DNA of 64,000 bases, taken from contig NZ_SIJH01000007.1 in assembly GCF_004762095.1 (NCBI RefSeq), forward strand, positions 62,001 through 126,000, written 5' to 3'. This document shows, piece after piece, positions 19,130 through 47,998 of the stretch. The notes beneath the pieces are model-generated. The model searched no databases. It saw nothing but the letters and a program-made list of their open reading frames with translations, and was not told where the DNA came from. Every line of letters begins with the position of its first letter. Position 1 is the stretch's first letter. The position numbers and the translations under genes were made by a program. The DNA comes from Tabrizicola caldifontis (GTDB lineage: Bacteria > Pseudomonadota > Alphaproteobacteria > Rhodobacterales > Rhodobacteraceae).

Positions 19130-20278
19130 TCAGGGCATCCGCGAGGCGATGTATCGCGCAAATTCGAAATTCGGCCGTTCCAGATGGCTCAGCGCACCCG
19201 GAGCCGACATGTTGGCGCACAATCCGCGATAGACCCGTTCGACGCAGCCCTTGTCCTCGATGTTGACCTCATCGAGCAGCGCCTTGAGCGCGGCCAGATG
19301 CTTTTCGGCCTCGGGGTCGGCGCACCAGTCGGCACTCATCCCGCCACCGAAAAGCACGTTGACCGAACCGGGGCCATCGGGCGTCAGGCTGAGATACCAG
19401 AAATAGCCCGGCGTCAGCGTGATCAGCAGCGCCGGATAGATCGACAACAGCCAGGTGATGCGGCGCTGGTCGCCCTGCAGCGTGGTGTTCGACGGGTGCG
19501 CCAGCGACAAAGGCAGCGTGTCGTTCTTGACGATGTAGTGATAGTTGAAGCTGGGATAGCCTTCCGGGCAGGTCATCTTCAGAAGATCCACCGTGCCACC
19601 GATTGTGCCCTGATGGCAGACGGGAAGGTGGTAGCTTTCCATGAAGTTCTCGGCCAGCACCTTCCAGTTCGTCGCCCAGCGGAATTCCTCGCGGAAGGTT
19701 TCGCGGTAACTGGCCATGTCAAGATAACCGACAAGGCTTTCGACATCCTTGAGCGCCTCGTGCGGGCTTGGCGCGTCCGGGTTCAGCGTGACCATGATCC
19801 AGCCAAGCCAGTCCTCGACGCGCACCGTCGGCAACCTGACGTCTTCCTTGCAGAAGCCTTCGTTCAGCGCCATCGCAGGCGCCCCGCGCAAGGATCCGTC
19901 AAGATTGTAGGTCCAGGCATGGTAGGGGCAGACGATGCTGCGCACGTTGCCCCGCCCTTCCAGAAGCGTGCTCATCCGGTGGCGGCAGACATTCGACATG
20001 GCGCGCAGCGTGCCGTCCCGGTCACGCAGGATGATGATCGGCTCGCCCGAGATATCCATCGTCAGATAATCACCGGGGTTGGCCAGAGCATCTGCCCGGC
20101 CCGCACACAGCCATTCCTTCGCGAAGATGTGGCGCTGTTCGGCCTCGGCGAATTCGGACGAGGTATAGACCGATTTCGGCATGGCATGAGCGCGCTCGAA
20201 CGGCACGGAGACATTCGCGCGCAACTCGGACAGGGCAGAGAGGGCGGGGGCGGACAAGGCGGGGTCGTGGCGGGTCAT
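19130..20278 (-). CDS. Rieske non-heme iron oxygenase, alpha subunit
   Basis: 382-residue ring-hydroxylating-type oxygenase. The Rieske [2Fe-2S] ligands are in CRHRM and CPYHAWTYNLDGSL (C-x-H...C-x2-H). The catalytic domain carries NWKVLAENFMESYHLPVCH, giving the mononuclear-iron histidines, with the second Asp/Glu ligand farther on. The single-subunit type and sequence resemble enzymes that demethylate quaternary amines (glycine betaine or stachydrine), but the substrate is not certain. No reductase gene is adjacent. The SGNH hydrolase lies 61 bp upstream on the same strand. Confidence 0.88.
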   Translation of the reverse strand: MTRHDPALSAPALSALSELRANVSVPFERAHAMPKSVYTSSEFAEAEQRHIFAKEWLCAGRADALANPGDYLTMDISGEPIIILRDRDGTLRAMSNVCRHRMSTLLEGRGNVRSIVCPYHAWTYNLDGSLRGAPAMALNEGFCKEDVRLPTVRVEDWLGWIMVTLNPDAPSPHEALKDVESLVGYLDMASYRETFREEFRWATNWKVLAENFMESYHLPVCHQGTIGGTVDLLKMTCPEGYPSFNYHYIVKNDTLPLSLAHPSNTTLQGDQRRITWLLSIYPALLITLTPGYFWYLSLTPDGPGSVNVLFGGGMSADWCADPEAEKHLAALKALLDEVNIEDKGCVERVYRGLCANMSAPGALSHLERPNFEFARYIASRMP

Positions 20279-20339
20279 GGGAACACCTTTTCAGTCATCC
20301 TGCAACGGGCGCGGCAGGCCGGAAAGCGGGAAGTCGACA

Positions 20340-20981
20340 TCAGGCGGGAAAATTCCGCCGGATCGCCTCGGCAAAGGCTTCGGCCAGGGGGGCATTCGCG
20401 CCGGCCTCGTAATGGATGCCGTCCACGGGCGAGACGCGCACCACCTGACCGGCATCAAGGAAGGGCACATCCAGCCGCTGTGCCGCGGCCTCGATCTCTC
20501 GGGCCAGCGCCCGCGACTTGGCTGCACCTCCGGCGAACATGCCGGCAAGGCACCCGGCCTCCTCGATCGGCGGCGGCGCGACCAGAAGCACCCCCGGCGC
20601 GGACCCTTCGGGCCCGCAGCCCGAGGCCCGGATCACGCGCACCAGCCGCTCCAGCGACAGCGCGATGTCGCCCGCATTGACCGAAAAGCGTTCCTTCAGG
20701 TCATTGGTTCCCAGCATCAGCAGAACCACATCCACCGGCCGGTGGCTTTCCAGGATCGCGGGCAACACCGTAAGGCCGTTACGGTGCGCGCCTTCCACCG
20801 GGTCATCGTGCACCGTCGTCCGGCCTGGCTGACCTTCGGCAATCACTTCCCAGTCGGGCAGAAGCCGCGCCAGCCGCCCCGTCCAGCGTTCTTCCCGGCT
20901 GTAGCGGGCGGTGAAGCCCAGATAGGGCGCGGGCAGCGTGCCGTGGGTATTGCTATCGCCGTAACAAAGCAGGGTGCGCAT
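20340..20981 (-). CDS. SGNH/GDSL hydrolase
   Basis: 213-residue esterase-type hydrolase. Block I is CYGDSNTHG with the nucleophile Ser at about residue 10, block III is LGTNDLKE, and block V is DGIHYE with the catalytic Asp and His. No signal peptide, so probably cytoplasmic. Similar to arylesterase/acylhydrolase proteins; substrate unknown. It is divergent from the LacI-family regulator at 21131 and probably co-transcribed with the downstream oxygenase. Confidence 0.88.
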   Translation of the reverse strand: MRTLLCYGDSNTHGTLPAPYLGFTARYSREERWTGRLARLLPDWEVIAEGQPGRTTVHDDPVEGAHRNGLTVLPAILESHRPVDVVLLMLGTNDLKERFSVNAGDIALSLERLVRVIRASGCGPEGSAPGVLLVAPPPIEEAGCLAGMFAGGAAKSRALAREIEAAAQRLDVPFLDAGQVVRVSPVDGIHYEAGANAPLAEAFAEAIRRNFPA

Positions 20982-21072
20982 GGGATCCTCCGGTTTCGGG
21001 CTGGGTGTATCCCATGTGACGGGGAATTGCAGCGGAATCCGCAGCCGGCGCGGATGCTCTGCACGGAAATCG

Positions 21073-21088
21073 TGATTGACGTACCTCA
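21073..21088. promoter_or_regulatory. LacI-type operator overlapping the regulator promoter
   Basis: TGATTGACGTACCTCA; the right half GTACCTCA is the exact complement of the left half of the operator at 22240-22255. It covers the -35 box of the regulator gene, so autorepression is likely. Confidence 0.6.
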
Positions 21089-21104
21089 GGCCGCGCCCGA
21101 TAGT
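21076..21104 (+). promoter_or_regulatory. Sigma-70-type promoter of the LacI-family regulator
   Basis: TTGACG, 17 bases, GATAGT; 27 bp before the GTG start of the regulator. The -35 box lies within the operator at 21073-21088. Confidence 0.6.
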
Positions 21105-21130
21105 CGGGGAAAGGGTTTCGGGAGCAGTCC

Positions 21131-22198
21131 GTGCGACCTACCGTGAATGACATCGCGCGCGAAGCGGGCGTCAGCCTTGCCACCGTGGACCGGGTTCTCA
21201 ACGCGCGCCCCGGCGTGCGGGAAAAGACGATCAGGGCAGTGAACGAAGCCATCGCCCGGCTGGGCTATGTTCGGGATCTCACCGCAGCCAATCTGGCGCG
21301 AAGCCGCAGTTACCGCATGGCGGTGCTGCTGCCAGATACGGAAAGCCAATTTGTTCAAAGCCTTGCCGATGCGCTGATCGAGGCCGGCTCGCAGGCGGCG
21401 ACCGCCAGGATCGAACTGAAGTTGCTGCGTTTTCCGGCCGAAGATCCGCACGCGCTGGCGGCGCTACTGGCGGGCCTGCCAGGGCGCGGCTACGCCGGGG
21501 TCGCGCTGATGGCGCCGGAAACCCCGGTCCTGCGCGATGCGGTGCGTGGCTTGCGCGTCAGGGGACTGCCGGTCGTGGCACTGGTCTCGGACCTGCCGAA
21601 TACAGGCCGTGATCACTTTGTCGGCATCGACAACCGCGCCGCAGGCCGGACGGCCGGTGTGCTGATGGGCCGGTTCCTGGGTGGAGGGCCGGCCCAGGTC
21701 ATGGTGATCGGCCAGTCGCTGCTGGCCCGCGACATGATCGAACGCCGCCGCGGCTTTGACGAGGTGATGCTGCGCGATTTTCCGGCCATCGAGGTGCTGC
21801 CTTCGCTGGAAACCCACGGATCGGAACGGCTTCTGCGGCAGGTCGTGGCAGAAACGCTGCTCCATGCGCCGGATGTGCGCGGCATCTACGCCATGGGAAA
21901 CGGTCATCGTTCTCTGACCCAGATTGTTGAAGAAATGGGGCTCTCCGGCCGGTTGACCGTCATCTGCCACGAACTGACACCACACATGCGGGGGGCGCTG
22001 GAGGCCGGAACGGTCACAGCCGTCATCACGCAGAACCTAGGCCACCTTGCGCGCTCGACCCTGCGCGTGCTGCGCGCCAAGGCCGACAATCTGCCGCTGG
22101 ACGAGGGGCAGGAACAGATCCGCATCGAGATCGTCCTGCGCGAGAACCTGCCGCCGGCCCCCGATTCGGTCCGCCAGAACCCGGCCGCCGCTGCCTGA
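21131..22198 (+). CDS. LacI-family transcriptional regulator
   Basis: 355 residues starting at a GTG with GGGAG upstream. The N-terminal DNA-binding domain reads TVNDIAREAGVSLATVDRVL (residues 4-23), followed by the hinge NLARSRSYRMAVLLPD and a periplasmic-binding-protein-like effector domain. It heads an island with an ABC importer and a dihydroxyacetone kinase, so its effector is probably the imported sugar or its phosphate. Related palindromes precede this gene (21073) and the transporter (22240), supporting control of both. The last residues (PPAPDSVRQNPAAAA) look unstructured. Confidence 0.93.
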   Translation: MRPTVNDIAREAGVSLATVDRVLNARPGVREKTIRAVNEAIARLGYVRDLTAANLARSRSYRMAVLLPDTESQFVQSLADALIEAGSQAATARIELKLLRFPAEDPHALAALLAGLPGRGYAGVALMAPETPVLRDAVRGLRVRGLPVVALVSDLPNTGRDHFVGIDNRAAGRTAGVLMGRFLGGGPAQVMVIGQSLLARDMIERRRGFDEVMLRDFPAIEVLPSLETHGSERLLRQVVAETLLHAPDVRGIYAMGNGHRSLTQIVEEMGLSGRLTVICHELTPHMRGALEAGTVTAVITQNLGHLARSTLRVLRAKADNLPLDEGQEQIRIEIVLRENLPPAPDSVRQNPAAAA

Positions 22199-22239
22199 CA
22201 CGCCCTCGGATCGTTCCGGCCGAATCCTGCGCGACAAAA

Positions 22240-22255
22240 TGAGGTACGTTCCTCA
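22240..22255. promoter_or_regulatory. LacI-type operator before the ABC importer
   Basis: TGAGGTACGTTCCTCA is a 16-bp palindrome with one mismatched pair and a central CG, as usual for LacI-family operators. It lies just upstream of a promoter candidate. Its half-site recurs before the regulator gene at 21081-21088. Confidence 0.7.
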
Positions 22256-22263
22256 AAAATGCT

Positions 22264-22292
22264 TTACAGAAGGCCTGCCCCGTGCCTATCGT
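22264..22292 (+). promoter_or_regulatory. Promoter candidate of the ABC importer operon
   Basis: TTACAG, 17 bases, TATCGT, ending 65 bp before the binding-protein ATG and starting 9 bp after the operator at 22240-22255. Confidence 0.45.
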
Positions 22293-22357
22293 CACGTCAA
22301 TCCAAAGAAGGCCCGGCATCCGCACGGGCACGCCACAACCTTGATCGGGAGGATTGC

Positions 22358-23674
22358 ATGAAACGGACCACTCTTGCCGCCTCGGCGGCCCTTGCCTTGG
22401 CATGGGCGGCACAGGCCAATGCGCAGGCCAACGAACTGACGCTTTGCTGGGCCGCCTGGGATCCGGCAAACGCGCTGGTCGAGCTGTCGAAGGACTTCGA
22501 GGCCCAGTCCGGCATCAAGATGAAGTTCGAATTCGTGCCCTGGCCGAACTTCGCCGACCGCATCCTGAACGAGCTGAACTCCGGCGGCCAGCTCTGCGAC
22601 CTCTTGATCGGCGACAGCCAGTGGATCGGGGGCGCGGCCGAGAACGGCTGGTATGTCAAGCTGAACGACTTCTTCGACAAGGAAGGCATCAGCATGGACG
22701 ACTTCGCCCCGGCGACCGTCTATGCCTATTCGACCTGGCCGAAGGGTACGCCGAACTACTACGCGCTGCCTGCCATGGGTGATGCGAACGGCTGGTTCTA
22801 TCGCAAGGACTGGTTCAACCGCGACGACATCAAGGCCGCCTACAAGGAGGCCACCGGCCAGGACCTGCGCGAACCGCAAAGCCAGAAGGAGCTTCTCCAG
22901 ATCGCCCAGTTCTTCCAGGGCCGCGAGATCGACGGCAAGACGGTCTATGGCGCCTCGATCTTCACCGAGCGCGGCTCGGAAGGCATCACCATGGGCGCGA
23001 CTGGCGCGCTCTATGCCTGGGGCTTCAAGTATGAAAACACCCCAGGCAGCTATGACATGGAAGGTGCGGTGAACAGCCCCGAGGCGGTGGAAGCCCTTGA
23101 ATTCTACAAGGAGCTTTACAAGACCGCGACACCTCCGGGTTATGACAACGCCTACATGGAACAGTCGCTGGATGCCTTCAAGTCGGGCCAGGTCGCGATG
23201 GCGATGAACTGGTTCGCCTTCTTCCCCGGCCTCTATGCCGATCCGAACGTGGGCGGCGACAAGATCGACTTCTTCGTGAACCCGCCGCAGAATGTGGCCG
23301 CCTCCACCCTGGGCGGCCAGGGCATCAGCGTGGTGGCCAACACCGACAACATGGATGGTGCGCTGGCCTACATCAAATGGTTCGCCGACCCGGAAGTGCA
23401 GAAGAAATGGTGGGCGGCGGGTGGCTATTCCTGCCACAAGGCGGTGCTGGAGGATCCGAACTTCGTCAACACCGCACCCTTCGCGGGCGACTTCCTCGAG
23501 GCGATGAACGGCGTGCAGGACTTCTGGCAGGAACCGGCCTATGCCCAGCTCCTGCTGGCCATGCAGGCCAGGCTGCACAATTACATCGTCGCCGACCAGG
23601 GCACTGCGAAAGAGGCCCTGGACGGCCTGATCGCCGACTGGACCGAAGTCTTCCAGGACGAAGGCAAGCTCTAG
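22358..23674 (+). CDS. ABC transporter substrate-binding protein (family 1 sugar binding)
   Basis: 438-residue periplasmic binding protein. The start at 22358 has GGGAGG upstream and gives a signal peptide (KRTTLAASAALALAWAAQA, cleavage about NAQA/NEL). The mature protein begins LTLCWAAWDPANALVELSKDFEAQSG, typical of extracellular solute-binding family 1. It captures the ligand for the permeases encoded downstream. The dihydroxyacetone kinase at the operon's end suggests a short ketose, but the ligand is inference. It is separated from the first permease by 159 bp holding hairpin repeat copy B, which could help keep binding protein more abundant than permease. Confidence 0.92.
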   Translation: MKRTTLAASAALALAWAAQANAQANELTLCWAAWDPANALVELSKDFEAQSGIKMKFEFVPWPNFADRILNELNSGGQLCDLLIGDSQWIGGAAENGWYVKLNDFFDKEGISMDDFAPATVYAYSTWPKGTPNYYALPAMGDANGWFYRKDWFNRDDIKAAYKEATGQDLREPQSQKELLQIAQFFQGREIDGKTVYGASIFTERGSEGITMGATGALYAWGFKYENTPGSYDMEGAVNSPEAVEALEFYKELYKTATPPGYDNAYMEQSLDAFKSGQVAMAMNWFAFFPGLYADPNVGGDKIDFFVNPPQNVAASTLGGQGISVVANTDNMDGALAYIKWFADPEVQKKWWAAGGYSCHKAVLEDPNFVNTAPFAGDFLEAMNGVQDFWQEPAYAQLLLAMQARLHNYIVADQGTAKEALDGLIADWTEVFQDEGKL

Positions 23675-23707
23675 TCCGCCACTGCGCGACGCCTCCCGCC
23701 CGGCTGC

Positions 23708-23787
23708 TCCCCTCCCCCTCGTGGGGAGGGGATGGGGGCGGGGGGCACCCCCTCCCTCTCCCTCCCCCATGCAGGGGAAGGGGAAGC
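23708..23787. repeat. GC-rich hairpin repeat, copy B
   Basis: A perfect 10-bp stem TCCCCTCCCC / GGGGAGGGGA around CTCGT (23708-23732), then TGGGGGCGGGGGGCACCCC, then a second hairpin with an ATGCA loop (about 23760-23782). Same family as copies A (in hrpB) and C (24799-24935). It lies within the operon between binding-protein and permease genes. Confidence 0.75.
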
Positions 23788-23833
23788 GCGCAGCCGCCCC
23801 GTTGCGCCAACATTTTCTGCACCGGATCACCCG

Positions 23834-24778
23834 ATGACCAACCCCATCGAAGCCGCTGCCCGGGCCACGCCCGCCCCCATAGCCCGCCGTGTCCGGGGCT
23901 TGTCCGACCGCACCATCGCCTGGCTCTTCGTAGCGCCCACGATCTTCCTGCTCCTGGCAATCAACATCTTCCCGCTGATCTGGACGGTGCGGCTTTCCTT
24001 CACGAACTACGCCGCCAACCGCCCGAACCGCGAGGTGGAATGGGTCGGCCTGCGCAACTACACCCGGATCCTGACCGACGACGGCATCTGGGCCAACATG
24101 CAGACCACGGCGCATTTCCTGGTCTGGACCATCTTCTTGCAGGTGGTGATCGGCTTCACCCTGGCCTGGCTGATCAACCGGAAATTCAGGGGCAACGACC
24201 TTCTGACTACGCTGATCGTGCTGCCGATGATGCTGTCGCCCGCTGTGGTCGGCAACTTCTGGACCTTCCTCTACCAGCCGCAGATCGGGCTGGTGAACTA
24301 TGCGGTAGAGCTGGTTACCGGCATTCCGGCCTCCAGCTTTTCCATGCTTGGCCCTGGCGGGCTGGCGAAATGGTCGATCATCATCGTCGACACCTGGATG
24401 TGGACGCCCTTCGTGATGCTGATCTGCCTTGCCGGCCTGCGGTCGATTCCCGATTACATATATGAAGCGGCCGAAGTGGACCGTGCCTCGAAATGGCGGC
24501 AGTTCTGGACGATCACCGTGCCGATGGTGCTGCCGTTCCTGATGCTGGCGGTGCTTTTCCGTGGCATCGAGAACTTCAAGATGTTCGACATGGTGGTGCT
24601 GCTGACCGGCGGCGGGCCGGGGAACGAGACACTGCTCGCCTCGATCGACCTGAAACGCGAGGCCTTCGAGAAATGGCGCACCGGCTATTCCAGCGCCTAT
24701 GCGATCATCCTGTTCGTCACGGTCTTCGGCCTGGCCTCGATCTACGTCAAGGCCCTGAACAAGGTGAAGGAGCGGTGA
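23834..24778 (+). CDS. ABC sugar transporter permease (MalF-like)
   Basis: 314-residue inner-membrane permease with about six membrane segments, the first at about residues 28-50 (IAWLFVAPTIFLLLAINIFPLIWTV). The coupling (EAA) motif is visible as YEAAEVDRASKWRQFWTITVPMVLP. Pairs with the next permease to form the channel. The frame is open upstream to 23732, but that part is the repeat, and the ATG at 23834 is the family start. No strong ribosome site is visible before it. Confidence 0.92.
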   Translation: MTNPIEAAARATPAPIARRVRGLSDRTIAWLFVAPTIFLLLAINIFPLIWTVRLSFTNYAANRPNREVEWVGLRNYTRILTDDGIWANMQTTAHFLVWTIFLQVVIGFTLAWLINRKFRGNDLLTTLIVLPMMLSPAVVGNFWTFLYQPQIGLVNYAVELVTGIPASSFSMLGPGGLAKWSIIIVDTWMWTPFVMLICLAGLRSIPDYIYEAAEVDRASKWRQFWTITVPMVLPFLMLAVLFRGIENFKMFDMVVLLTGGGPGNETLLASIDLKREAFEKWRTGYSSAYAIILFVTVFGLASIYVKALNKVKER

Positions 24779-24798
24779 CGCCCATGGTCACACCAGTG

Positions 24799-24935
24799 CC
24801 CCAGCCCCCCCACCCCCATCCCCTCCCCGCCAGGGGGAGGGGAGCCGCCCGGCCCGGCCGTGTCGCGCCAGCGCATCCATCCCGCGCCTCCCTCCCCCCT
24901 AAGTGGGGGAGGGATGGGGTGGGGGGGCACCCCGT
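24799..24935. repeat. GC-rich hairpin repeat, copy C
   Basis: Two hairpins in the 175-bp gap between the permease genes: ATCCCCTCCCC / GGGGGAGGGGA around GCCA (about 24818-24844) and CCTCCCCCC / GGGGGAGGG around TAAGT (about 24889-24913). The second ends in GATGGGGTGGGGGGGCACCCC, nearly the same tail as copy B. Confidence 0.75.
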
Positions 24936-24953
24936 CAGATCAGGAGCGCATCG

Positions 24954-25895
24954 ATGAGCGCCTATTCCGTCACCGAACCTTCGAAGGCTTCGAAATGGCT
25001 CGCCGGCCTGCTGGTTGCCCTTTACACGCTCATCACGCTGCTGCCGCTGGTCTGGATCATCTCCACCAGCTTCAAGACCGGACCGGACAGCATCTCCTAC
25101 CCGCCGAAGGTGATCTTCGAACCTTCGCTCGAAGGCTACGTCAACCTCTTCACCACCCGCACCCGCATCGCGGCCGAGGATTTTGCCGCCCTGCCCCCGC
25201 CCGAGACCTGGTATGACCGGATCGTCCGCGACCAGGGCATGGTCATCGCCGGGCAGTCGCGGTTTGGCGAAAGGTTCATGAACTCGGTCATCATCGGGTT
25301 TGGCTCCACGTTTCTGTCGATCTTCCTCGGCACGCTGGCGGCCTATGCCTTCAGCCGGTTCAAGGTGCCGCTGAAGGATGACCTTCTGTTCTTCATCCTC
25401 TCGACCCGGATGATGCCCCCCATCGCCGTCGCGATCCCGATCTACCTGATGTATCGGGAACTTGGGCTATCCGACACGCATCTGGGGATGATCCTGCTCT
25501 ACACGGCGGTGAACATTTCGCTCGCCGTCTGGCTGCTGAAGGGGTTCATCGACGAGATCCCGCGCGAATATGAAGAGGCCGCGCTGATCGACGGCTACAC
25601 CCGCTTCCAGGCCTTCCGGAAGGTCGTCCTGCCCCAGGCAGCAACCGGCATCGCCTCGACCGCGATCTTCTGCCTGATCTTCGCCTGGAACGAATACGCC
25701 TTCGCCGTGCTCCTGACCTCGGGCAACGCCCAGACCGCGCCGCCATTCATTCCCACGATCATCGGCGTCGGCGGCCAGGATTGGCCCGCCGTGGCTGCCG
25801 GGGCGACCCTGTTCCTGTTGCCGGTGATGATCTTCACCATCCTGCTGCGCAAGCACCTGCTGCGCGGGATCACTTTCGGAGCCGTGCGCAAATGA
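24954..25895 (+). CDS. ABC sugar transporter permease (MalG-like)
   Basis: 313-residue permease; start at 24954 with CAGGAG upstream. First membrane segment about residues 15-37 (GLLVALYTLITLLPLVWIIS). A periplasmic insert of about 70 residues follows. The EAA motif reads YEEAALIDGYTRFQAFRKVVLPQ. Partner of the permease at 23834. Its stop overlaps the next start (ATGA). Confidence 0.92.
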   Translation: MSAYSVTEPSKASKWLAGLLVALYTLITLLPLVWIISTSFKTGPDSISYPPKVIFEPSLEGYVNLFTTRTRIAAEDFAALPPPETWYDRIVRDQGMVIAGQSRFGERFMNSVIIGFGSTFLSIFLGTLAAYAFSRFKVPLKDDLLFFILSTRMMPPIAVAIPIYLMYRELGLSDTHLGMILLYTAVNISLAVWLLKGFIDEIPREYEEAALIDGYTRFQAFRKVVLPQAATGIASTAIFCLIFAWNEYAFAVLLTSGNAQTAPPFIPTIIGVGGQDWPAVAAGATLFLLPVMIFTILLRKHLLRGITFGAVRK

Positions 25896-26080
25896 CCGCC
25901 TTCCTCTCCGGCCTTCTGCGCCTGCGTCGCGGCCCCTGGGAGATGCTGGCCACGATCCTGATCGCGCTGGGCGTGGTGATGCTGATGCAGCCCTTCTTCC
26001 TGTGGGCCTATACCTGGTCCTTCCTCGTGACGCTGGTCGGGACGGTGATGTTCATCATCGTCTCGCATTTCCCGGAGTAA
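25892..26080 (+). CDS. Small two-segment membrane protein of the ABC island
   Basis: 62 residues starting at an ATG that overlaps the permease stop by 4 bp. Two hydrophobic segments are seen, about residues 18-38 (MLATILIALGVVMLMQPFFL) and 41-58 (TWSFLVTLVGTVMFIIV). The tight coupling on both sides (3 bp to the ATPase) says it belongs to the transporter. The glycerol importer has a larger small-membrane gene (glpU) at the corresponding place, after its two permeases. Function unknown; it may be an accessory subunit. Confidence 0.7.
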   Translation: MTAFLSGLLRLRRGPWEMLATILIALGVVMLMQPFFLWAYTWSFLVTLVGTVMFIIVSHFPE

Positions 26081-26083
26081 GCC

Positions 26084-27178
26084 TTGTCCGAGATCGTCAT
26101 CAAGAACCTCCGCAAGGAATTCGGCGCCTTCACCGCGGTGCAGGGCTCGACCTTCACCATCCGGGATGGCGAATTCTTCATGCTGCTCGGCCCCTCGGGC
26201 TGCGGCAAGACCACGACCCTGCGCATGATCGCAGGGCTGGAGCTGCCGACCAGCGGCCAGATCCTGATCGACGGCGAGGATGTCAGCCAGAAGCCCGCCA
26301 GCCAGCGCGACATCGCCATGGTGTTCCAGATGTTCGCGCTCTATCCGCACATGAACGTGCGCAAGAACATCGCCTATCCGCTGGTCAGCCAGGGGGTGCC
26401 AAAGGCCGAGGTTCAGCGCAAGGTGGCTGAAGTCGCCCGCATTCTGCGGATCGAGCACCTGCTCGACAAAGGCGTGGGCGGGCTTTCCGGCGGCGACCGC
26501 CAGCGTGTCGCCCTGGGCCGCGCGATCGTCAGGAACCCCAAGGCCTTCATGATGGACGAACCGCTTGGCGCGCTGGACGCCGAGTTCCGCGAGATCATGG
26601 CCGAGGAGCTGCGCGCGCTGCACGACCGGATGGGGGCGACCACCGTCTATGTCACCCACGACCAGCTGGAGGCGATGCAGATGGGCGACAAGATCGTGGT
26701 GATGAACCACGGCGTCGTCGAACAGTTCGGCACGCCGCAAGAAATCTACGACCATCCCGCCACGCTGTTCGTGGCCGATTTCATCGGCAGCCCGGCGATG
26801 AACTTCCTGCGCTTCGAAGGGGCGGTGGCTGCGGGCGGCACAACGGTCACGCTGGGCGATACGCCCATCGACCTGCCCGCCCTTCAGGAGGATGCGGCAG
26901 GCAAGCTGGTGCTTGGCGTGCGGCCCGAACATGTCACGCTGTCGGACGTTGCACCTCTGCGGGCCCGCATCGAGGCGGTAGAATACCTGGGCACAACCCA
27001 GATCGTCACGCTTTCCACGCCGCATGGCACTGTGAAGGCGCGCACACCCTCGACCCTGCCGGCGAGGGTCGGCGACCTGACCGGCCTTGCCCTTAACACG
27101 CCGCGCCTCTCGCTTTTCGACGCCACCAGCGGCCGCGCCTTCCGTACCGCCGCCAATGCCGGGGTGTTTCATGGCTGA
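26084..27178 (+). CDS. ABC transporter ATPase (MalK/UgpC type), first copy
   Basis: 364 residues starting at a TTG preceded by GGAG. All ATP-site motifs are intact: Walker A GPSGCGKTTT (about 38-47), Q-loop VFQMFALYPHM, signature LSGGDRQRV, Walker B MMDEPLGALD and H-loop VTHDQLEA. A C-terminal OB/TOBE regulatory part begins around FIGSPAMNFL and contains LGVRPEHV. It energises uptake with the permeases at 23834 and 24954. The next ATPase gene starts within its last codons. Confidence 0.93.
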   Translation: MSEIVIKNLRKEFGAFTAVQGSTFTIRDGEFFMLLGPSGCGKTTTLRMIAGLELPTSGQILIDGEDVSQKPASQRDIAMVFQMFALYPHMNVRKNIAYPLVSQGVPKAEVQRKVAEVARILRIEHLLDKGVGGLSGGDRQRVALGRAIVRNPKAFMMDEPLGALDAEFREIMAEELRALHDRMGATTVYVTHDQLEAMQMGDKIVVMNHGVVEQFGTPQEIYDHPATLFVADFIGSPAMNFLRFEGAVAAGGTTVTLGDTPIDLPALQEDAAGKLVLGVRPEHVTLSDVAPLRARIEAVEYLGTTQIVTLSTPHGTVKARTPSTLPARVGDLTGLALNTPRLSLFDATSGRAFRTAANAGVFHG

Positions 27179-28163
27179 GGTCACGCTTTCCGACCTGTCA
27201 AAATCCTTCGGCGCAACACAGGCGCTGAGGGGTGTCTCGATGACCATTCCCGATGGCGCCTTTGTCGTGCTCCTCGGACCTACCGGCGCGGGCAAGACCA
27301 CGACGCTGCGACTGATCGCGGGGCTGGAGAAACCTGACACCGGAGATGTCCGCATCGCCGGCGCGTCTGTGGTCAACGACACCCCCGCCCAGCGCGACGT
27401 GGCGATGGTCTTCCAGCAGTATTCGCTCTACCCCCATCTCAGCGTGCGCGACAACCTGGCCTTCCCGCTCCGCTCGCCCATGATCCGCATGCCCGAGGAC
27501 CAGATCGCCCGCCGTGTGCGGGAAGTGGCCGAGGTGCTGAGGATACCGCACAAGCTGGACAACAGGGCCACCGCGCTTTCTGGCGGCGAGATGCAGCGCG
27601 TCTCGATCGGCCGCGCGCTGGTGCGCAACCCCCGCATCTACCTGATGGACGAACCGCTTTCGTCGCTGGACGCCAAGCTGCGCGCCGATCTGCGGGTGGA
27701 GCTGAAGCGCATCCACCAGGATCTGGGCGCAACCTTCCTTTACGTCACCCACGACCAGATCGAGGCGATGACCATGGCGACCCATGTCGGCGTTCTCGAC
27801 CAAGGCCGCGTCGTCCAGTTCGGAACGCCCCGCGAAATCTACGAAAACCCCGTCTCGACCTATGTCGCCTCACGCCTTGGCCAGCCGCACATCAACCTGT
27901 TGCCCGCTGATGCCTTCCCCGGCGCACCACATGGCGCCGCGACGATCGGCTTGCGCCCGGAACACATCATCACCGGCGAGGGCAAGGCGGCCATCATCCA
28001 GCGCATCGAACATCTGGGCGATCAGACCCGCCTGCACCTGACACTTGGCCCCCATGCGCTGGTGACGCTGACCGACCCGCACAGCACCCTGACCCCGGGC
28101 GAAACCCTGCACATCCGCCCGCTGAGCCCCCTCTGGTTCGACCGCGACGGCAACCGCATCTGA
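27171..28163 (+). CDS. ABC transporter ATPase (MalK/UgpC type), second copy
   Basis: 330 residues; its ATG overlaps the end of the first ATPase gene by 8 bp. Motifs are complete: Walker A GPTGAGKTTT, Q-loop VFQQYSLYPHL, signature LSGGEMQRV, Walker B LMDEPLSSLD, H-loop VTHDQIEA, then a shorter TOBE part (IGLRPEHI). Two different ATPase genes in one operon suggest a heterodimeric motor. Both partners keep all catalytic residues here, unlike GlpS/GlpT. Confidence 0.93.
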   Translation: MAEVTLSDLSKSFGATQALRGVSMTIPDGAFVVLLGPTGAGKTTTLRLIAGLEKPDTGDVRIAGASVVNDTPAQRDVAMVFQQYSLYPHLSVRDNLAFPLRSPMIRMPEDQIARRVREVAEVLRIPHKLDNRATALSGGEMQRVSIGRALVRNPRIYLMDEPLSSLDAKLRADLRVELKRIHQDLGATFLYVTHDQIEAMTMATHVGVLDQGRVVQFGTPREIYENPVSTYVASRLGQPHINLLPADAFPGAPHGAATIGLRPEHIITGEGKAAIIQRIEHLGDQTRLHLTLGPHALVTLTDPHSTLTPGETLHIRPLSPLWFDRDGNRI

Positions 28164-28175
28164 AAGGCCGCAGCC

Positions 28176-29798
28176 ATGAAGCAGTTCATCAACTCCCGCG
28201 ACACGCTTGTAACCGAGGCCATCGACGGCCTTCTGCGCACCTCCGGCGGCAAGCTGGCGCGGCTCGACGGGTACCCGCATATCAAGGTCGTTGTCCGCAC
28301 CGACTGGGACCGGTCGAAGGTGGCGCTGGTCTCGGGTGGCGGGTCGGGGCATGAACCTAGCCACGCCGGTTTCGTCGGGCAGGGGATGCTCACGGCCGCG
28401 GTATGCGGCGATGTCTTCGCCTCGCCTTCGGTGGATGCCGTGCTGGCGGGCATTCTTGCGGTCACCGGTAAGGCCGGCTGCCTGCTGATCGTCAAGAACT
28501 ACACCGGCGACAGGCTGAACTTTGGCCTGGCCGCCGAACGCGCCCGGGCCTTCGGGCTGAAGGTTTCCATGGTCATCGTCGATGACGACGTGGCGCTGCC
28601 CGACCTGCCCCAGGCGCGCGGGGTCGCCGGCACGCTTTTCGTCCACAAGATCGCCGGTGCCATGGCCGAATCCGGCGCAGACCTCGACACGATCACCGAG
28701 GCCGCCCAGACGGTGATCAAGGGCGCCATCTCCATCGGCATGTCGCTAGACACCTGTACCGTCCCCGGCTCGCCGAAAGAAGAGCGCATCGGCGCCGGCA
28801 AGGCCGAGCTGGGCCTTGGCATCCATGGCGAGGCCGGGATCGAACAGGTCGATTTCGACGGTGCGCGTTCGGCCATGCAGATGGTGACCGAGAAGCTGCT
28901 GCCCCATACCGGGCCGGGCGACCATGTGGCGCTTCTGAACAACCTCGGCTCCACCACGCCCCTGGAAATGTCGGTCCTGGCCGAGGAACTTGCCCGTTCG
29001 CCCCTGGGCGCCAAGGTCAAGTGGATGATCGGCCCCGCGCCGCTGATGACCTCGCTCGACATGCACGGCTTCTCGGTCTCGCTGCTGCCGGTGGACCACG
29101 CACAGGTCACCAGTCTTGCTGCGCCCGTGGCCCCTCATGCCTGGCCGGGCCTTTCCCCGTTCGGGCAGGTCGCCGTGCGCCCCCTGCCCGACGGGCTTGC
29201 CCCGATCCAGCCAGTGCCCTCCGCCCACCCCGCCCGCCGGGCGCTGATCGAGCGGTGCTGCAAGGCGCTCATCGCCTGCGAGGCCGACCTGAACCAGCTG
29301 GATGCCAAGTCCGGCGACGGTGACACAGGCAGCACCCTTGCCGGGGCCGCAAGGGCGCTTCTGGCGGCCTTGGACCGCCTGCCCCTGGCCGACCCCACGC
29401 AGCTTTACCGTGCCATCGGCATGGAACTGTCGCAGACGATGGGCGGCTCGTCCGGCGTCCTGCTTGCGATCTTCTTCGCCGCAGCGGGCGATGCCTCGGC
29501 CTCGGGCAAGCCCTGGATCGGCGCCCTGTCCGCGGGACTTGACCGCGTGATGCAGGTGGGCGGCGCCGCCCCCGGCCACCGCACGATGATCGACGCGCTT
29601 GCCCCGGCGCTGGCGGCCATGCCGGACGGACTGGCCGCTGCGGCAAGGGCAGCGCGTGAAGGGGCCAACGCCACAGCCGCAATGACCCGCGCCAAGGCGG
29701 GCCGGGCAAGCTATCTGGCGGCCGACAAGCTGAAGGGTCACAACGACCCCGGCGCAGAAGGCGTGGCGCGTCTGTTCGAGGATCTGGCAAAGGGGTGA
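28176..29798 (+). CDS. Dihydroxyacetone kinase, fused DhaK-DhaL
   Basis: 540-residue ATP-dependent kinase. The DhaK part has GGGSGHEPSHAGFVGQGML (about 53-72) and GIHGEAG with His217, the residue that covalently binds the substrate carbonyl. The DhaL part begins about residue 355 with DAKSGDGDTGSTLAGAA, the ADP-Mg loop, and MGGSSGVLL. Phosphorylates dihydroxyacetone, making a glycolytic triose phosphate; relatives act on erythrulose or glyceraldehyde. Last gene of the LacI island, 12 bp after the ATPase, so it probably acts on the imported sugar. Confidence 0.92.
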   Translation: MKQFINSRDTLVTEAIDGLLRTSGGKLARLDGYPHIKVVVRTDWDRSKVALVSGGGSGHEPSHAGFVGQGMLTAAVCGDVFASPSVDAVLAGILAVTGKAGCLLIVKNYTGDRLNFGLAAERARAFGLKVSMVIVDDDVALPDLPQARGVAGTLFVHKIAGAMAESGADLDTITEAAQTVIKGAISIGMSLDTCTVPGSPKEERIGAGKAELGLGIHGEAGIEQVDFDGARSAMQMVTEKLLPHTGPGDHVALLNNLGSTTPLEMSVLAEELARSPLGAKVKWMIGPAPLMTSLDMHGFSVSLLPVDHAQVTSLAAPVAPHAWPGLSPFGQVAVRPLPDGLAPIQPVPSAHPARRALIERCCKALIACEADLNQLDAKSGDGDTGSTLAGAARALLAALDRLPLADPTQLYRAIGMELSQTMGGSSGVLLAIFFAAAGDASASGKPWIGALSAGLDRVMQVGGAAPGHRTMIDALAPALAAMPDGLAAAARAAREGANATAAMTRAKAGRASYLAADKLKGHNDPGAEGVARLFEDLAKG

Positions 29799-30180: not shown

Positions 30181-31149
30181 ATGCCGAAGATCGACCTTTC
30201 CCGCCGCTTGCCCGAAGCGCGGATCCCCGAATTGCCGAACCCCTATTACGGCAAGGTGCGCGACTGCTACGACCTGCCTGACGGCACGCGCCTTCTGATC
30301 TCGTCCGACCGGATTTCCGCCTTTGACCGCATCCTTGCGGTGATACCGTGGAAGGGCCAGGTCCTGACCCAGCTTGCGCGCTACTGGTTCGACCGGACCG
30401 CCGACATCGCCCCGAACCACGTCATCGGCTACCCCGACCCGAACGTGGTGCACTGCAAGCGGGTGACGATCCTGCCGGTGGAAATCGTCGTGCGCGGCTA
30501 TCTGGCCGGCACCACCTCGACCTCCATCCTGACGCAATACCGGGCAGGCAAGCGCGAGATGTATGGCCACCGCCTGCCCGACGGGCTGCGCGACAACGAG
30601 GCCCTGCCGCAGCCGATCATCACTCCCACCTCCAAGGCCTTCGACGGCGGCCACGACGAGCCGCTGACGGCGGCAGAGATCGTCGGAACAGGTCTGCTGA
30701 CGCAGGCGCAGTGGAACGAGGTCAGCGCAAAGGCGCTGGCGCTGTTCGCGCGCGGCCAGCAGATGGCGGCCGAACGCGGGTTGATCCTTGTGGACACAAA
30801 ATACGAATTTGGCACCGATGCCCAGGGCAACATCCTGCTGGCCGATGAGATCCACACCCCTGATTCGAGCCGCTACTGGATCGCCGAGGGCTATGCCAAG
30901 GCGTTCGAGGCCGGCACCCGCCCGCCCAGCTTCGACAAGGACGTGATCCGCTCATGGGTGGTGGCGCGCTGCGATCCCTACCGCGACCCGATTCCCGCGA
31001 TTCCCGAGGAGATGATCGAAAAGACCGCGATGGTCTATATCGACGCCTACGAACGCATCACCGGCCAACCCTTCATCCCCGATGCAAGCGGGGAAACCCC
31101 GCTTGCCCGGGTGAGGGCCAATCTTGCCCGGTTCTTCAGCCCTTCGTGA
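30181..31149 (+). CDS. purC: SAICAR synthetase (long form)
   Basis: Purine biosynthesis: joins aspartate to CAIR with ATP to make SAICAR. 322 residues, i.e. the longer eukaryote-like form (about 300) rather than the usual bacterial one of about 240. Motifs: [46 protein letters not shown] and [14 protein letters not shown]. The ATG at 30181 is preceded by a GGGGG-rich stretch. It overlaps the convergent hsp20 gene by 14 bp. Confidence 0.95.
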
Positions 31150-31549
31150 TCGGCACGCGCGCGGCGGCCTTCTTCTCGGGCTTCTTGGGGACGGTCACGG
31201 TCAGGACTCCATCCTTCATCTCGGCCTTCACACCGGCCGAATCTGCATCGGACGGCAGGCGGAAGCTGCGGCTGAAGCTGCCGAACTGGCGTTCCGAGAA
31301 ATACCAGGTATCGCCCTTTTCTTCGCGTTCGCTCTTCTTTTCGCCCTTCACCTGCAGGACGCCATCCTCGACCGTCACCTGGACATCGTCCTCGCCCACA
31401 CCCGGCAGCTCCATCGCGATCCTGTAGCTGTCGCCGCTCTGGCTGGCTTCGGCGGCAAGCGACAGCCAGTCTGCCAGACGGGAGCCCATCATGCGGAACG
31501 GCTCGTAAAGGCTGGGCCAGAAGCTGCCCGGTGCTGACTTCTCTACCAT
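31136..31549 (-). CDS. Small heat shock protein (Hsp20/alpha-crystallin)
   Basis: 137-residue ATP-independent chaperone. The alpha-crystallin domain starts near [29 protein letters not shown] and ends with the conserved [11 protein letters not shown] linker with RSFRLPSD is typical. The C-terminal I/V-x-I anchor is VPI. Upstream is a 12-bp palindrome CCTTGATCAAGG (31613-31624) that might be a control site. The 3' end overlaps purC. Confidence 0.93.
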
Positions 31550-31739
31550 GGAATCCTCCCATTCTTTTGCTGAATGCGGGCATTCTGGTGCGTTGACCGG
31601 CTTGCGCCATGACCTTGATCAAGGCGAAAAGCTTCTGGCATCAGGGAATCACGAACGCTATGTGCAACCGGGGCTTCGGCACGCTGTTTGCGCTAACGGC
31701 CACGGCACCCTATCCTGCCGAGGGCCAAGGGAGGGGACG

Positions 31740-32663
31740 ATGATTCTGAGTTGCGGCGAAGCCCTGATCGACATGCTGCCCCGGACATCGACCGAGGGCG
31801 AGGCCTGCTTTGCCCCTTACGCCGGGGGCGCCGTGTTCAACACGGCCATCGCGCTTGGGCGGCTTGGGGCGCCGTCGGCGTTCTTTTCCGGTGTCTCGAC
31901 CGACATGCTTGGCGAAATCCTGGCGGATGCGCTGGTCGCCTCGAAGGTGGATACCCGTTTCCTCGCGCGGTCGGACCGCCCCACGACCGTGGCCTTCGTC
32001 AAGCTGGTGAACGGTCAGGCAACCTATGCGTTCTATGACGAGGCGACGGCGGGCAGGATGCTTTCCACCGCCGATCTGCCCGACCTTCCGCCCGATGTGC
32101 AGGCCCTGTTCTTCGGAGGCATCAGCCTGGTGAACGACCCGGCCGCCTCGACCTACGAAGCGTTCCAGGCGCGCGAATGCGGCACCCGTGTAACCATGAT
32201 CGACCCCAACATCCGCCCCGGCTTCATCGCCGGCAAGGAAGCCGCCTACCGCGACCGCATCGGGCGGATGATCGCTCGGGCCGATATCGTGAAGCTTTCG
32301 GACGAGGACCTGCACTGGCTGGAAGGCCCGGGAGACCCAACGGAGCTTGCGCGCGGCATCCTGTCAAGGGGTCCGAAAGTCGTGTTCGTCACCGAAGGTG
32401 CAAGGGGCGCGCGCGCGGTGACTGCAACACAGACCCGGTTTGTGGCGGCCCAGAAGGTTGCGGTCGTAGATACGGTCGGCGCGGGCGATACGTTCAACGC
32501 GGGCGTGCTTGCGGCCCTGCATCGCGCCCGGGTGCTGACGAAAGCCGGGGTGGCAGCTTTGCCGGATGCCACGCTGGATGCGGCTCTTGACCTTGGCACG
32601 CGGGCGGCTGCGGTCACGGTCAGCCGTGCGGGGGCCAATCCCCCCTGGGAGGTAGAACTGTGA
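31740..32663 (+). CDS. PfkB-family carbohydrate kinase (fructokinase-like)
   Basis: 307-residue ribokinase-family enzyme. Motifs: [18 protein letters not shown] near the N-terminus and the catalytic signature [12 protein letters not shown] with the base Asp. The ATG at 31740 has GGGAGGGG upstream. The best guess is fructokinase, but sugar specificity cannot be read. It overlaps dtd by 4 bp and probably shares its transcript. Confidence 0.88.
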
Positions 32664-38579: not shown

Positions 38580-38634
38580 CTGGGTTGACGGAATCGTGAC
38601 GATCGGCACAGGTTGTGCCCGGGGAGGAACCCAC

Positions 38635-40239
38635 GTGACAGACGTATCGGCAGGGGTCGCAAGCGATCTCTTCATCATCGGGGGCGGAATCAACGGCTGC
38701 GGCATCGCGCGCGACGCGACTGGCCGCGGGTTGACGGTGACGTTGGCCGAACAGGGTGATCTGGCCCAGGGCACCTCTTCTGCTTCGACCAAGCTTTTCC
38801 ACGGGGGCCTGCGCTATCTGGAATATTTCGAGTTCCGCCTGGTGCGCGAGGCGCTGGAGGAACGCGAGACGCTGCTGGTCGCCATGCCGCACATCAGCTG
38901 GCCCATGCGCTTCGTCCTGCCCCTGTCGCCGGACATGCGCTTCGACAGCGACACGCCTACATCGCGGCTTCTGGGCTGGGTGATGCCCTGGGCCAGGGGG
39001 CGTCGGCCCGACTGGCTGATCCGGCTGGGGCTCTTCCTCTACGACACGATGGGCGGACGGAAGATCCTGCCACCGACCCGCACGCTGGACCTGACGCGGG
39101 ATCCGGCCGGCAGGCCCCTGAAACCCGGGTTTCGCAAGGCGTTCGAATATTCCGACTGCTGGGTGGAGGATTCGCGCCTTGTTGTGCTGAACGCCCGCGA
39201 CGCGGCCATGCGTGGGGCGCGGATCCTGACCCGGACCCGCGTGGTCAGCGCGGAACGCCGGGACGATCTGTGGCACGTCACCACCGAAGGCCCGCACGGT
39301 CGGCAGGAGCACATGGCGCGCGTCCTGGTCAATGCCGGCGGGCCGTGGGTCGAAGAGGTGATCCGCAATGTTGCCCGGATCAATTCGTCGGAAGGCGTAC
39401 GGCTGGTGCGCGGCTCGCACATCGTGACGCGCCGGCTTTTCGACCATGACCGCTGCTATTTTTTCCAGGGAACCGACGGGCGGATCATCTTTGCCATCCC
39501 CTACGAGCAGGACTTCACCCTGATCGGCACGACCGACAAGGACCATCAGGGCGCGCCCGGGGATGCCCGCTGCACCGACGAAGAGCGCGACTACCTTCTG
39601 GCCTTCGCCAGCCAGTACTTCGCCAATCCCGTGACGAAGGAGGATGTGGTCTGGACCTATTCCGGTGTCCGACCGCTGTACAACGACGGGGCCAAATCGG
39701 CCACCGCGGCCACGCGCGACTATGTGCTCAGCCTCGACCGCAACGGCGCGCCCCTTCTGAACGTGTTCGGCGGCAAGATCACCACATACCGCCGTCTGGC
39801 CGAATCTGCCCTGGCGAAGCTTGCACCCTTCTTCCCGAAGGCGACTTCCGCCTGGACCGCCCGCATGGCGCTTCCGGGCGGCGATTTTCCGCATGACGGG
39901 GTGGCCGCACTGACCGCAAAGCTGAAGGGGCGGTATCCGTTCCTGACCGATTACTGGGCAGGCCGGATGATCCGTGCCTACGGGACCGAAGCCTTCACCA
40001 TCCTGGGCAACGCGGGCAGCGCCGAGGCGCTGGGCCGGGATTTCGGCGCCACCCTGACCGAAGCCGAGGTTCGATGGCTGATGGCGCAGGAATGGGCGGT
40101 GACCGCCGCCGACGTCGTCTGGCGCCGCTCGAAGCTGGGGCTGCGGATGACGGCCGAACAGATCGAAGAACTCGACCGTTTCATGGCCGGACAGGTCGGG
40201 GCGGACGCGGGCCGGGCAGTCAGCCCGGCGGCGGAATAG
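38635..40239 (+). CDS. glpD: Glycerol-3-phosphate dehydrogenase (aerobic, FAD)
   Basis: Oxidises glycerol-3-phosphate to dihydroxyacetone phosphate, passing electrons to quinone at the membrane. 534 residues. FAD motif LFIIGGGINGCGIARDA at the N-terminus, then TSSASTKLFHGGLRYLEYFEF and LVNAGGPW and TTYRRLAE. The GTG at 38635 is well placed after GGGGAGGAA. First gene of glpDSTPQUV, divergent from glpR, and 9 bp from glpS. Confidence 0.95.
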   Translation: MTDVSAGVASDLFIIGGGINGCGIARDATGRGLTVTLAEQGDLAQGTSSASTKLFHGGLRYLEYFEFRLVREALEERETLLVAMPHISWPMRFVLPLSPDMRFDSDTPTSRLLGWVMPWARGRRPDWLIRLGLFLYDTMGGRKILPPTRTLDLTRDPAGRPLKPGFRKAFEYSDCWVEDSRLVVLNARDAAMRGARILTRTRVVSAERRDDLWHVTTEGPHGRQEHMARVLVNAGGPWVEEVIRNVARINSSEGVRLVRGSHIVTRRLFDHDRCYFFQGTDGRIIFAIPYEQDFTLIGTTDKDHQGAPGDARCTDEERDYLLAFASQYFANPVTKEDVVWTYSGVRPLYNDGAKSATAATRDYVLSLDRNGAPLLNVFGGKITTYRRLAESALAKLAPFFPKATSAWTARMALPGGDFPHDGVAALTAKLKGRYPFLTDYWAGRMIRAYGTEAFTILGNAGSAEALGRDFGATLTEAEVRWLMAQEWAVTAADVVWRRSKLGLRMTAEQIEELDRFMAGQVGADAGRAVSPAAE

Positions 40240-40248
40240 GGGACTGGA

Positions 40249-41337: not shown

Positions 41338-41338
41338 C

Positions 41339-42409
<1,071 letters not shown>

Positions 42410-42412
42410 GCC

Positions 42413-43284
42413 ATGGAAAAGACCCAGAACAACAAGGCCTGGCTCCTCGTCCTGCCGGTGCTGGTGCTGGTCGCGTTCTCGGCCGTGCTGCCGCTGATGA
42501 CGGTGGTCAACTATGCCTTCAACGACACGTTCGGAAACAACCAGTTCTTCTGGACCGGCATCGAATGGTTCGATGACATGATCCATTCCGAACGCCTGCG
42601 CGCGGCGCTGGGCCGGCAGGTGATGTTCTCGCTCATCATCCTGGCGATCGAGGTGCCCCTTGGCATCTTCATCGCCCTGAACATGCCGAAGAAGGGCTTC
42701 TGGGCCAGCCTCTGCCTCGTCCTGATGGCCCTGCCGCTTCTGATCCCGTTCAACGTGGTCGGCACGATCTGGCAGATCTTCGGCCGGGTGGACATCGGCC
42801 TTCTCGGGCGGGCGCTGCAAGGCATGGGCATCGACTACAACTACACCAATGACCCGCTGGATGCCTGGATCACCGTCATCGTGATGGATGTCTGGCACTG
42901 GACCTCGCTGGTGGCGCTTCTGGCCTATGCCGGGCTGCAGTCGATTCCGCAGGCCTATTATCAGGCCGCCAGGATCGACCAGGCCACCCGCTGGTCCGTG
43001 TTCCGCTACATCGAGCTGCCGAAGATGAAGGGCGTCCTGCTCATCGCCATCCTGTTGCGCTTCATGGACAGTTTCATGATCTACACCGAGCCCTTCGTCG
43101 TCACCGGTGGCGGTCCGGGCAACTCGACCACCTTCCTGTCGATCGACTTGGCGAAGATGGCCACAGGCCAGTTCGACCTGGGCCCCGCCGCCGCCTTCTC
43201 GATCATGTACTTCCTGGTCATCCTGCTGATCTCGTGGGTTTTCTACACCGTGATGACCAACCTCGACCGCGAGGAGGCCCGCTG

Positions 43285-43285
<1 letters not shown>
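42413..43285 (+). CDS. glpP: Glycerol ABC importer permease GlpP
   Basis: 290 residues, about six membrane segments (first WLLVLPVLVLVAFSAVLPLM). EAA motif YQAARIDQATRWSVFRYIELP. Stop overlaps the next start by one base. Pairs with GlpQ. Confidence 0.92.
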
Positions 43286-44088
<803 letters not shown>

Positions 44089-44090
44089 CC

Positions 44091-44495: not shown

Positions 44496-44580
44496 TGGGG
44501 AAAGCAAGACCCTCGGGCGGAGGAGACAGAATCGCCCGGGGCCACAACCGAAACGTCTCAACATTCTGGGAGGAATCACG

Positions 44581-46302: not shown

Positions 46303-46314
46303 GCCTTCCGGGGC

Positions 46315-46338: not shown

Positions 46339-46346
46339 GCGCCAAG

Positions 46347-46513: not shown

Positions 46514-47994
<1,481 letters not shown>

Positions 47995-47998
<4 letters not shown>

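What the first reader, a model, noticed from the sequence alone, without database searches (positions are those of the whole stretch)
21131..29798. LacI-controlled ABC importer plus fused dihydroxyacetone kinase: candidate ketotriose uptake module
Seen: LacI regulator, binding protein, two permeases, 62-aa membrane protein, two intact ATPases and a DhaK-DhaL fusion in tight order. The kinase implies that the imported ligand is dihydroxyacetone or a close ketose (erythrulose). I do not know a well-characterised dedicated ABC importer for dihydroxyacetone. Ligand is inference.
Basis: partly seen in the sequence, partly recalled or inferred. Interest (0 to 1): 0.75.

Follow-up and report, generated by a model that had tools for sequence, protein, structure and literature searches.

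The report
Sugar importer coupled to dihydroxyacetone kinase
A bacterial operon pairs a repressor-controlled nutrient importer with an enzyme that phosphorylates the three-carbon sugar dihydroxyacetone, and because the pairing recurs in many bacteria it probably feeds on dihydroxyacetone or something that releases it, although the imported molecule is not yet proven.

Summary
The cassette holds LacI, a CUT1-type binding protein, two permeases, a 62-aa membrane protein, two intact ATPases and an ATP-type DhaK-DhaL fusion, all on one strand. A LacI-type operator, TGAGGTACGTTCCTCA, lies at 22240-22255; it is the only perfect match to the family motif in this genome.

Of 108 neighbourhoods of the binding-protein gene, 89 had at least 6.6 kb downstream. 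In 86 the DhaK-DhaL fusion follows; the other three carry split or PTS-type DHA-kinase genes. This replacement of one kinase type by another is the strongest hint that the imported carbon becomes DHA.

Ligand identity remains inference. For DHA: no RpiB homologue was found in the 108 loci, and the closest solved kinase is C. freundii DHA kinase. Against free DHA: the binding protein's structural neighbours bind larger sugars or glycosides, and in 41 of 108 loci homologues of 3-keto-glucose enzymes sit alongside.

A similarly ordered Bradyrhizobium cluster (blr3566-blr3577) is in print as co-expressed; the passages I saw name no ligand (PMC5017801), and I compared its order only, not its sequence. 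My searches found no dedicated DHA ABC importer.

The parts
21131..22198 (+). LacI-family repressor, 355 aa (GTG start)
   Evidence: PF00356 + PF13407; a member of its cluster in 74 of 90 loci, upstream, divergent or downstream of the cassette
22240..22255 (.). LacI-type operator TGAGGTACGTTCCTCA
   Evidence: 7 of 8 symmetric pairs; 92 sites of TGAGGNNCGNNCCTCA in 64 of 90 loci (1.72 Mb), all 92 lying 146-365 b before the position of SBP residue 26; only perfect match in the own genome
22358..23674 (+). Solute-binding protein, CUT1/MalE-like, 438 aa from the likely start (ORF opens at 22259)
   Evidence: PF01547, PF13416; solved relatives 5iai, 1eu8; model pLDDT 66.7; structural neighbours
23834..24778 (+). 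ABC permease 1 (ORF opens at 23732)
   Evidence: PF00528
24954..25895 (+). ABC permease 2 (ORF opens at 24903)
   Evidence: PF00528
25892..26080 (+). 62-aa membrane protein of unknown role, conserved at this place
   Evidence: no family match; aligned with six homologues at 55-82% identity to it, 21 invariant columns
26084..27178 (+). ABC ATPase 1 with TOBE domain
   Evidence: PF00005, PF08402; best NCBIfam UgpC, 396.6 bits, below the 432 cut-off
27171..28163 (+). ABC ATPase 2 with TOBE domain (ORF opens at 27087)
   Evidence: PF00005, PF08402; best NCBIfam UgpC, 342.6 bits, below the cut-off
28176..29798 (+). DhaK-DhaL fusion, ATP-type dihydroxyacetone kinase, 540 aa
   Evidence: PF02733, PF02734; TIGR02361 500.8 bits, below the 574.95 cut-off; C. 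freundii DHA kinase 1un9 488.5 bits; D112, H217, D376, D381, D383 in 92 of 92 aligned sequences (window included) and H59 in 91, one gap

Best explanation
A LacI-repressed operon for taking up and phosphorylating a triose ketose, most likely dihydroxyacetone (DHA). The repressor sits on the operator at 22240-22255 until an inducer (DHA or a derivative) releases it. The periplasmic binding protein captures the ligand, the two permeases and two ATPases import it, and DhaK-DhaL uses ATP to make DHA phosphate, which enters glycolysis without further dedicated enzymes. Shown here: gene order, intact catalytic motifs, a conserved operator-like site, and DHA-kinase genes in 89 of 89 testable loci. 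Inferred: that LacI binds this site, that the ligand is DHA and not a conjugate, the order of events, and any role of the 62-aa protein.
For: Of 108 loci of the binding-protein gene, 89 had at least 6.6 kb after it: 86 carry the DhaKL fusion; L042 has DhaL- and DhaK-like genes apart, L156 and L157 PTS-type sets with HPr and EI. Among 198 family genomes the binding protein and DhaKL occur together in 51, one without the other in 4 and 5. In Bradyrhizobium a similarly ordered cluster with importer and PTS-type DHA kinase genes is induced and repressed together (PMC5017801, passages). No RpiB homologue in 108 loci, but one in the own genome's other DhaK/DhaL locus. Closest solved kinase is C. freundii DHA kinase, catalytic residues kept. 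Where the operator was found in a genome it was at one place, mostly at this gene.
Against: The structures nearest the binding-protein model bind oligosaccharides, disaccharides or sulfoquinovosyl compounds (titles; tagatose for 5ci5 and ribitol for 5iai are recalled, the titles being cut), and the model is mediocre (pLDDT 66.7), so no pocket could be judged. 41 of 108 loci also hold homologues of the 3-keto-glucal hydratase and a Gfo-type reductase; in the family sample 27 of 28 genomes with a binding protein of 80% or more identity have the hydratase somewhere, against 13 of 24 in the 62-67% group and 0 of 3 in the 71-72% group. Three family genomes (G126, G133, G188) have a 70-74% DhaKL without this binding protein, one of them (G126, L166) beside an RpiB homologue. 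The kinase falls below the NCBIfam glycerone-kinase cut-off. ATP-type DHA kinases can act on other short sugars (recalled).
Confidence: 0.52

Rival explanations
1. The importer takes up a larger molecule, such as a glucoside of glycerol or DHA, or a polyol. Enzymes encoded elsewhere or in the extended operon (3-keto-glucal hydratase, Gfo-type reductase) handle the sugar half, and DhaKL handles the triose half.
For: Hydratase and reductase homologues next to the cassette in 41 of 108 loci, 30 of them as SBP...DhaKL-LacI-HYD-RED with short gaps; hydratase in 27 of 28 genomes of the window's clade; own genome holds both at G000:C13:22030-24318; structural neighbours of the binding protein include glycoside binders.
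Against: 11 of 24 genomes of the second clade and all 3 of the 71-72% clade lack a hydratase match at 1e-100 although they have the binding protein. The hydratase-reductase pair also lies beside other ABC importer genes without DhaKL (L168, L169), and behind it in four loci comes an ORF that looks like an FGGY sugar kinase and in one (L081) like xylose isomerase (by eye), so it may be a general or xylose-linked accessory. No glycosidase or 3-dehydrogenase was seen to recur directly beside the cassette (judged without a family search).
Confidence: 0.25
2. The ligand is a tetrulose such as erythrulose, and DhaKL is an erythrulose kinase.
For: DHA-kinase-family enzymes that phosphorylate erythrulose are known (recalled: mycobacterial tetritol pathways). 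A cassette-less DhaKL relative (73% identical) in L166 lies beside an RpiB homologue.
Against: No RpiB homologue in any of 108 cassette loci (one query, E 1e-5), while one lies near the own genome's other DhaK/DhaL genes; an isomerase encoded elsewhere is not excluded, since the own genome has this one RpiB. The PTS-type genes in related cassettes match DhaL and PTS IIA families (on L036).
Confidence: 0.12
3. The importer serves an unrelated sugar and the kinase scavenges or detoxifies DHA made as a by-product.
For: DhaKL relatives occur apart from this importer in G126, G133 and G188.
Against: DHA-kinase genes are present in 89 of 89 testable loci, of another type where the fusion is absent.
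Confidence: 0.08

Closest known systems
Bradyrhizobium diazoefficiens USDA110 cluster blr3566-blr3577 (PMC5017801; passages seen)
   Same: By its published gene names: binding protein, two permeases, small hypothetical protein (bsr3569), two ATPases, then DHA kinase genes; expression changes together
   Different: Kinase is PTS-type (DhaL, IIA, HPr, EI, DhaK) instead of the ATP-type fusion; no ligand assigned in the passages seen. Its sequence was not compared here
Glycerol ABC importer GlpSTPQ/DUF2160/GlpV (named from recall; a copy in this window at about 40249-46302)
   Same: Two ATPases, two permeases, a small membrane protein and a binding protein
   Different: 22-38% identity to the subunits here; sits with GlpD and GlpK; its small protein is DUF2160, a model the 62-aa protein does not match
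Citrobacter freundii ATP-dependent DHA kinase (PDB 1un8, 1un9; organism recalled)
   Same: Same fused DhaK-DhaL domains and catalytic residues, 488.5 bits
   Different: Pairing with a dedicated importer is what is special here
E. coli DHA use (PMC6643234; passages seen)
   Same: DHA taken up and phosphorylated by a DHA kinase
   Different: The passage gives the channel GlpF a putative role in entry; no dedicated importer is named in the passages seen

Membership tests
CUT1-type ABC importer | MalE-like binding protein, two BPD_transp_1 permeases, ATPase with TOBE domain | tested here: met
ATP-type dihydroxyacetone kinase | DhaK and DhaL domains fused, with catalytic His, Asp and the three DhaL Asp residues | tested here: met
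   (residue roles recalled)
ATP-type dihydroxyacetone kinase | Score above the curated NCBIfam cut-off for glycerone kinase (TIGR02361, 574.95 bits) | tested here: not met
   500.8 bits; Pfam cut-offs for both domains are met
ATP-type dihydroxyacetone kinase | Phosphorylates DHA with ATP | not testable with these tools
   needs an enzyme assay
LacI-repressed operon | LacI gene plus a palindromic site before the first gene, conserved in relatives | tested here: met
LacI-repressed operon | The repressor binds the site and an inducer releases it | not testable with these tools
   needs a binding assay
Glycerol ABC importer (Glp type) | DUF2160 small protein | tested here: not met
   62-aa protein has no Pfam match; 22-38% identity between the other subunits of the two importers
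DHA importer | Binding protein binds DHA | not testable with these tools
   no pocket analysis possible at pLDDT 66.7

The most novel reading that the evidence does not exclude
A widespread, repressor-controlled, high-affinity ABC importer dedicated to dihydroxyacetone, in alpha-, beta- and gammaproteobacteria, in which ATP-driven and PTS-driven DHA kinases have replaced each other. It would make DHA a regularly scavenged nutrient in water and on plants.
Probability: 0.42. Interest if true: 0.72.

Novelty: new variant of a known kind. Interest (0 to 1): 0.5.

Why it matters
DHA is usually treated as an intracellular intermediate that enters cells by channels or diffusion (recalled; PMC6643234 gives GlpF a putative role). 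A dedicated importer would show that bacteria compete for DHA outside the cell, and would give a ligand to a large group of binding proteins annotated in the records I read only as 'extracellular solute-binding protein' or 'ABC transporter substrate-binding protein'. The sharp operator gives a direct handle for finding the inducer.

Tried and rejected
A structure model of the binding protein was too weak for pocket analysis; I ran no second job because the more distant relatives came from loci outside the allowed list. The idea that the 3-keto-glucose pair defines the substrate was dropped as a firm claim after the pair turned up beside other importers. Linkage to the glycerol locus was not general: its DUF2160 gene is about 22 kb from the binding-protein gene here and glycerol genes lie directly before the cassette in L114, but no other locus of the 107 searched gave a match above 45% identity, and in the family sample the two are mostly on different contigs or far apart (nearest others seen about 41 kb in G121, 79 kb in G043, 84 kb in G101). 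Co-occurrence is modest (39 of 55 against 66 of 143).

Limits of the counts. One search used a wrong start (27172) for ATPase 2, so its ATP2 percentages are meaningless; corrected to 27171 from then on. My ORF finder missed the 62-aa gene in many loci, so its 'False' entries are not absences. Nineteen of 108 loci were left out of the kinase count for short contigs; 9 of these still show DhaKL. Loci are not independent (several from one genus), and the Fisher tests ignore ancestry. In one search the backwards control gave one match on each strand at up to one mismatch, against four for the motif. Two of 11 genomes with the stricter motif had no binding-protein gene within 1.5 kb (L186, L189). 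Beside the hydratase-reductase pair, ORFs directly adjoining the cassette recur in at most 6 of 108 loci (a response-regulator-like ORF in 6; three groups of 4, one of them FGGY-kinase-like; all judged by eye). No structural family absence is claimed.
Full report
Observation. The described genes are all present and intact on the + strand. Most likely starts differ from the longest ORFs for the binding protein (22358), permease 1 (23834), permease 2 (24954) and ATPase 2 (27171). The binding protein, permeases and ATPases are of the CUT1 sugar-importer type; the best NCBIfam model for both ATPases is UgpC, below its cut-off. The kinase matches both DHA-kinase domains; its best solved relative is the DHA kinase 1un9, 488.5 bits, but it scores below the NCBIfam glycerone-kinase cut-off.

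Context. The upstream + strand ORF 20277-21146 has no family match; the opposite strand there encodes a GDSL hydrolase (20340-20981) and a Rieske-type oxygenase (19130-20278). Downstream are PurC (30181-31149) and a PfkB kinase (31548-32663). A glycerol locus lies at about 38.6-49.1 kb: GlpD and GlpK pass their curated cut-offs and the small protein is DUF2160; its permeases and binding protein are named from similarity and position.

Relatives. tblastn of the binding protein against plasmids gave 167 records at 1e-40. Seven annotated stretches read by me show the same order ending in a DHA kinase: Ruegeria, Phyllobacterium, Rhizobium T136, Alloyangia, Agrobacterium vitis, Rhizobium rosettiformans and Rhizobium L51/94 (hit); two more carry no annotation in the stretch. 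Proteins about 40% identical in Rhizobium leguminosarum and Sinorhizobium meliloti lie among other enzymes with no DhaKL match, so the link is specific to the closer family.

Kinase link. In 108 loci (the window, 9 plasmid loci, 80 contig loci and 18 stretches from unnamed family genomes), 89 have at least 6.6 kb after the binding protein; 86 carry DhaKL. L042 has DhaL- and DhaK-like genes apart (38% and 46% to my references); L156 and L157 carry PTS-type sets with HPr and EI. The 18 family stretches were chosen from hits, among them genomes lacking DhaKL or the hydratase, so they are not a random sample. In L036, L037 and L041 both kinase types follow one another. Across 198 family genomes, 51 have both the binding protein and DhaKL, 4 only the binding protein, 5 only DhaKL.

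Operator. A 16-base palindrome lies at 22240-22255. TGAGGNNCGNNCCTCA occurs 92 times in 1.72 Mb of 90 loci, in 64 of the 90; all 92 sites lie 146-365 bases before the position of residue 26 of the binding protein, often as two sites about 30 bases apart; 26 loci have none. In the own genome it is the single perfect match; three further places have one mismatch, and the backwards control gave one place. In 149 genomes (drawn as 'order', all but the own printed as same family, some of them searched before) 11 have the stricter TGAGGTNCGNACCTCA, each at one place; the backwards control was zero in the rows printed; 9 of the 11 are beside the binding-protein gene. The window's own site does not fit the stricter pattern.

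Accessory enzymes. In 41 of 108 loci a TIM-barrel protein and a Gfo/Idh/MocA oxidoreductase lie beside the cassette, 30 of them as SBP...DhaKL-LacI-HYD-RED. Their best solved relatives are 2-hydroxy-3-keto-glucal hydratase 8ro4 (608 bits) and an oxidoreductase 3v5n (636 bits). PMC10628242 (section 7 read) reports preliminary evidence for such a hydratase and a Gfo reductase in glucoside breakdown by Agrobacterium. The own genome holds both genes elsewhere, behind another LacI-like gene judged by eye. The pair also lies beside other ABC importer genes without DhaKL (L168, L169), and a few cassettes run on behind it into FGGY-kinase- or xylose-isomerase-like ORFs (by eye), while Ruegeria conchae has xylose genes just upstream. 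I treat the pair as accessory, but it keeps the conjugate hypothesis alive.

Triose or tetrulose. The product of an erythrulose kinase would need an isomerase such as RpiB (recalled). No RpiB homologue was found in the 108 loci (one query, E 1e-5); one lies near the own genome's second DhaK/DhaL locus and one beside the cassette-less DhaKL of L166. This favours a triose but does not exclude an isomerase encoded elsewhere. The binding protein's fold argues for caution, since its structural neighbours mostly bind larger sugars.

Literature. I saw listings, section 7 of PMC10628242, and passages of PMC5017801, PMC6643234, PMC9007349, PMC10628242, PMC13273386 and PMC5496347. None of what I saw names a dedicated DHA ABC importer; PMC5496347 calls the archaeal DhaKLM a DHA uptake system. 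Subscription journals are mostly not covered.

Verdict. A well-conserved, regulated importer-kinase unit of ordinary parts in an unusual and unassigned pairing. DHA is the best single guess for the ligand, at about even odds.

Noticed in passing
window 38596-49122: Glycerol locus: GlpD, two ATPases, two permeases, DUF2160 protein, a binding-protein ORF, GlpK and an iron-containing alcohol dehydrogenase-like protein. In L114 the matching genes, from a permease to the alcohol dehydrogenase, lie directly upstream of the DHA cassette.
   Followed up: partly
window 23690-23790 and 24804-24936: G+C-rich inverted repeats in the SBP-TM1 and TM1-TM2 gaps; as RNA these stretches fold better than all 200 shuffles (z -4.0 and -5.6). 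Similar palindromes at 6366-6455. Possibly repeat elements that affect mRNA.
   Followed up: partly
G000:C5:19000-38000 (L141): Second own-genome locus with two DhaK-like and two DhaL-like genes, an ABC importer of another type (by eye) and an RpiB homologue: may be a tetrulose or related pathway.
   Followed up: partly
L036:20231-20641; also L037, L041, L156, L157: Conserved 136-aa protein without Pfam or NCBIfam match, next to the PTS-type DHA kinase genes in all five loci where I saw those genes with EI.
   Followed up: no
L168, L169, L170: The hydratase and reductase pair beside other ABC importer genes without DhaKL; in L168 with ORFs that look like xylose isomerase and an FGGY kinase (by eye).
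   Followed up: partly
L167 (G133:C209:1-16000): DhaKL relative (71%) with extra DhaL- and DhaK-like genes, divergent from a LacI-hydratase-reductase cluster with another ABC importer.
   Followed up: no
L186, L189: Perfect LacI operator matches without the binding-protein gene within 1.5 kb.
   Followed up: no
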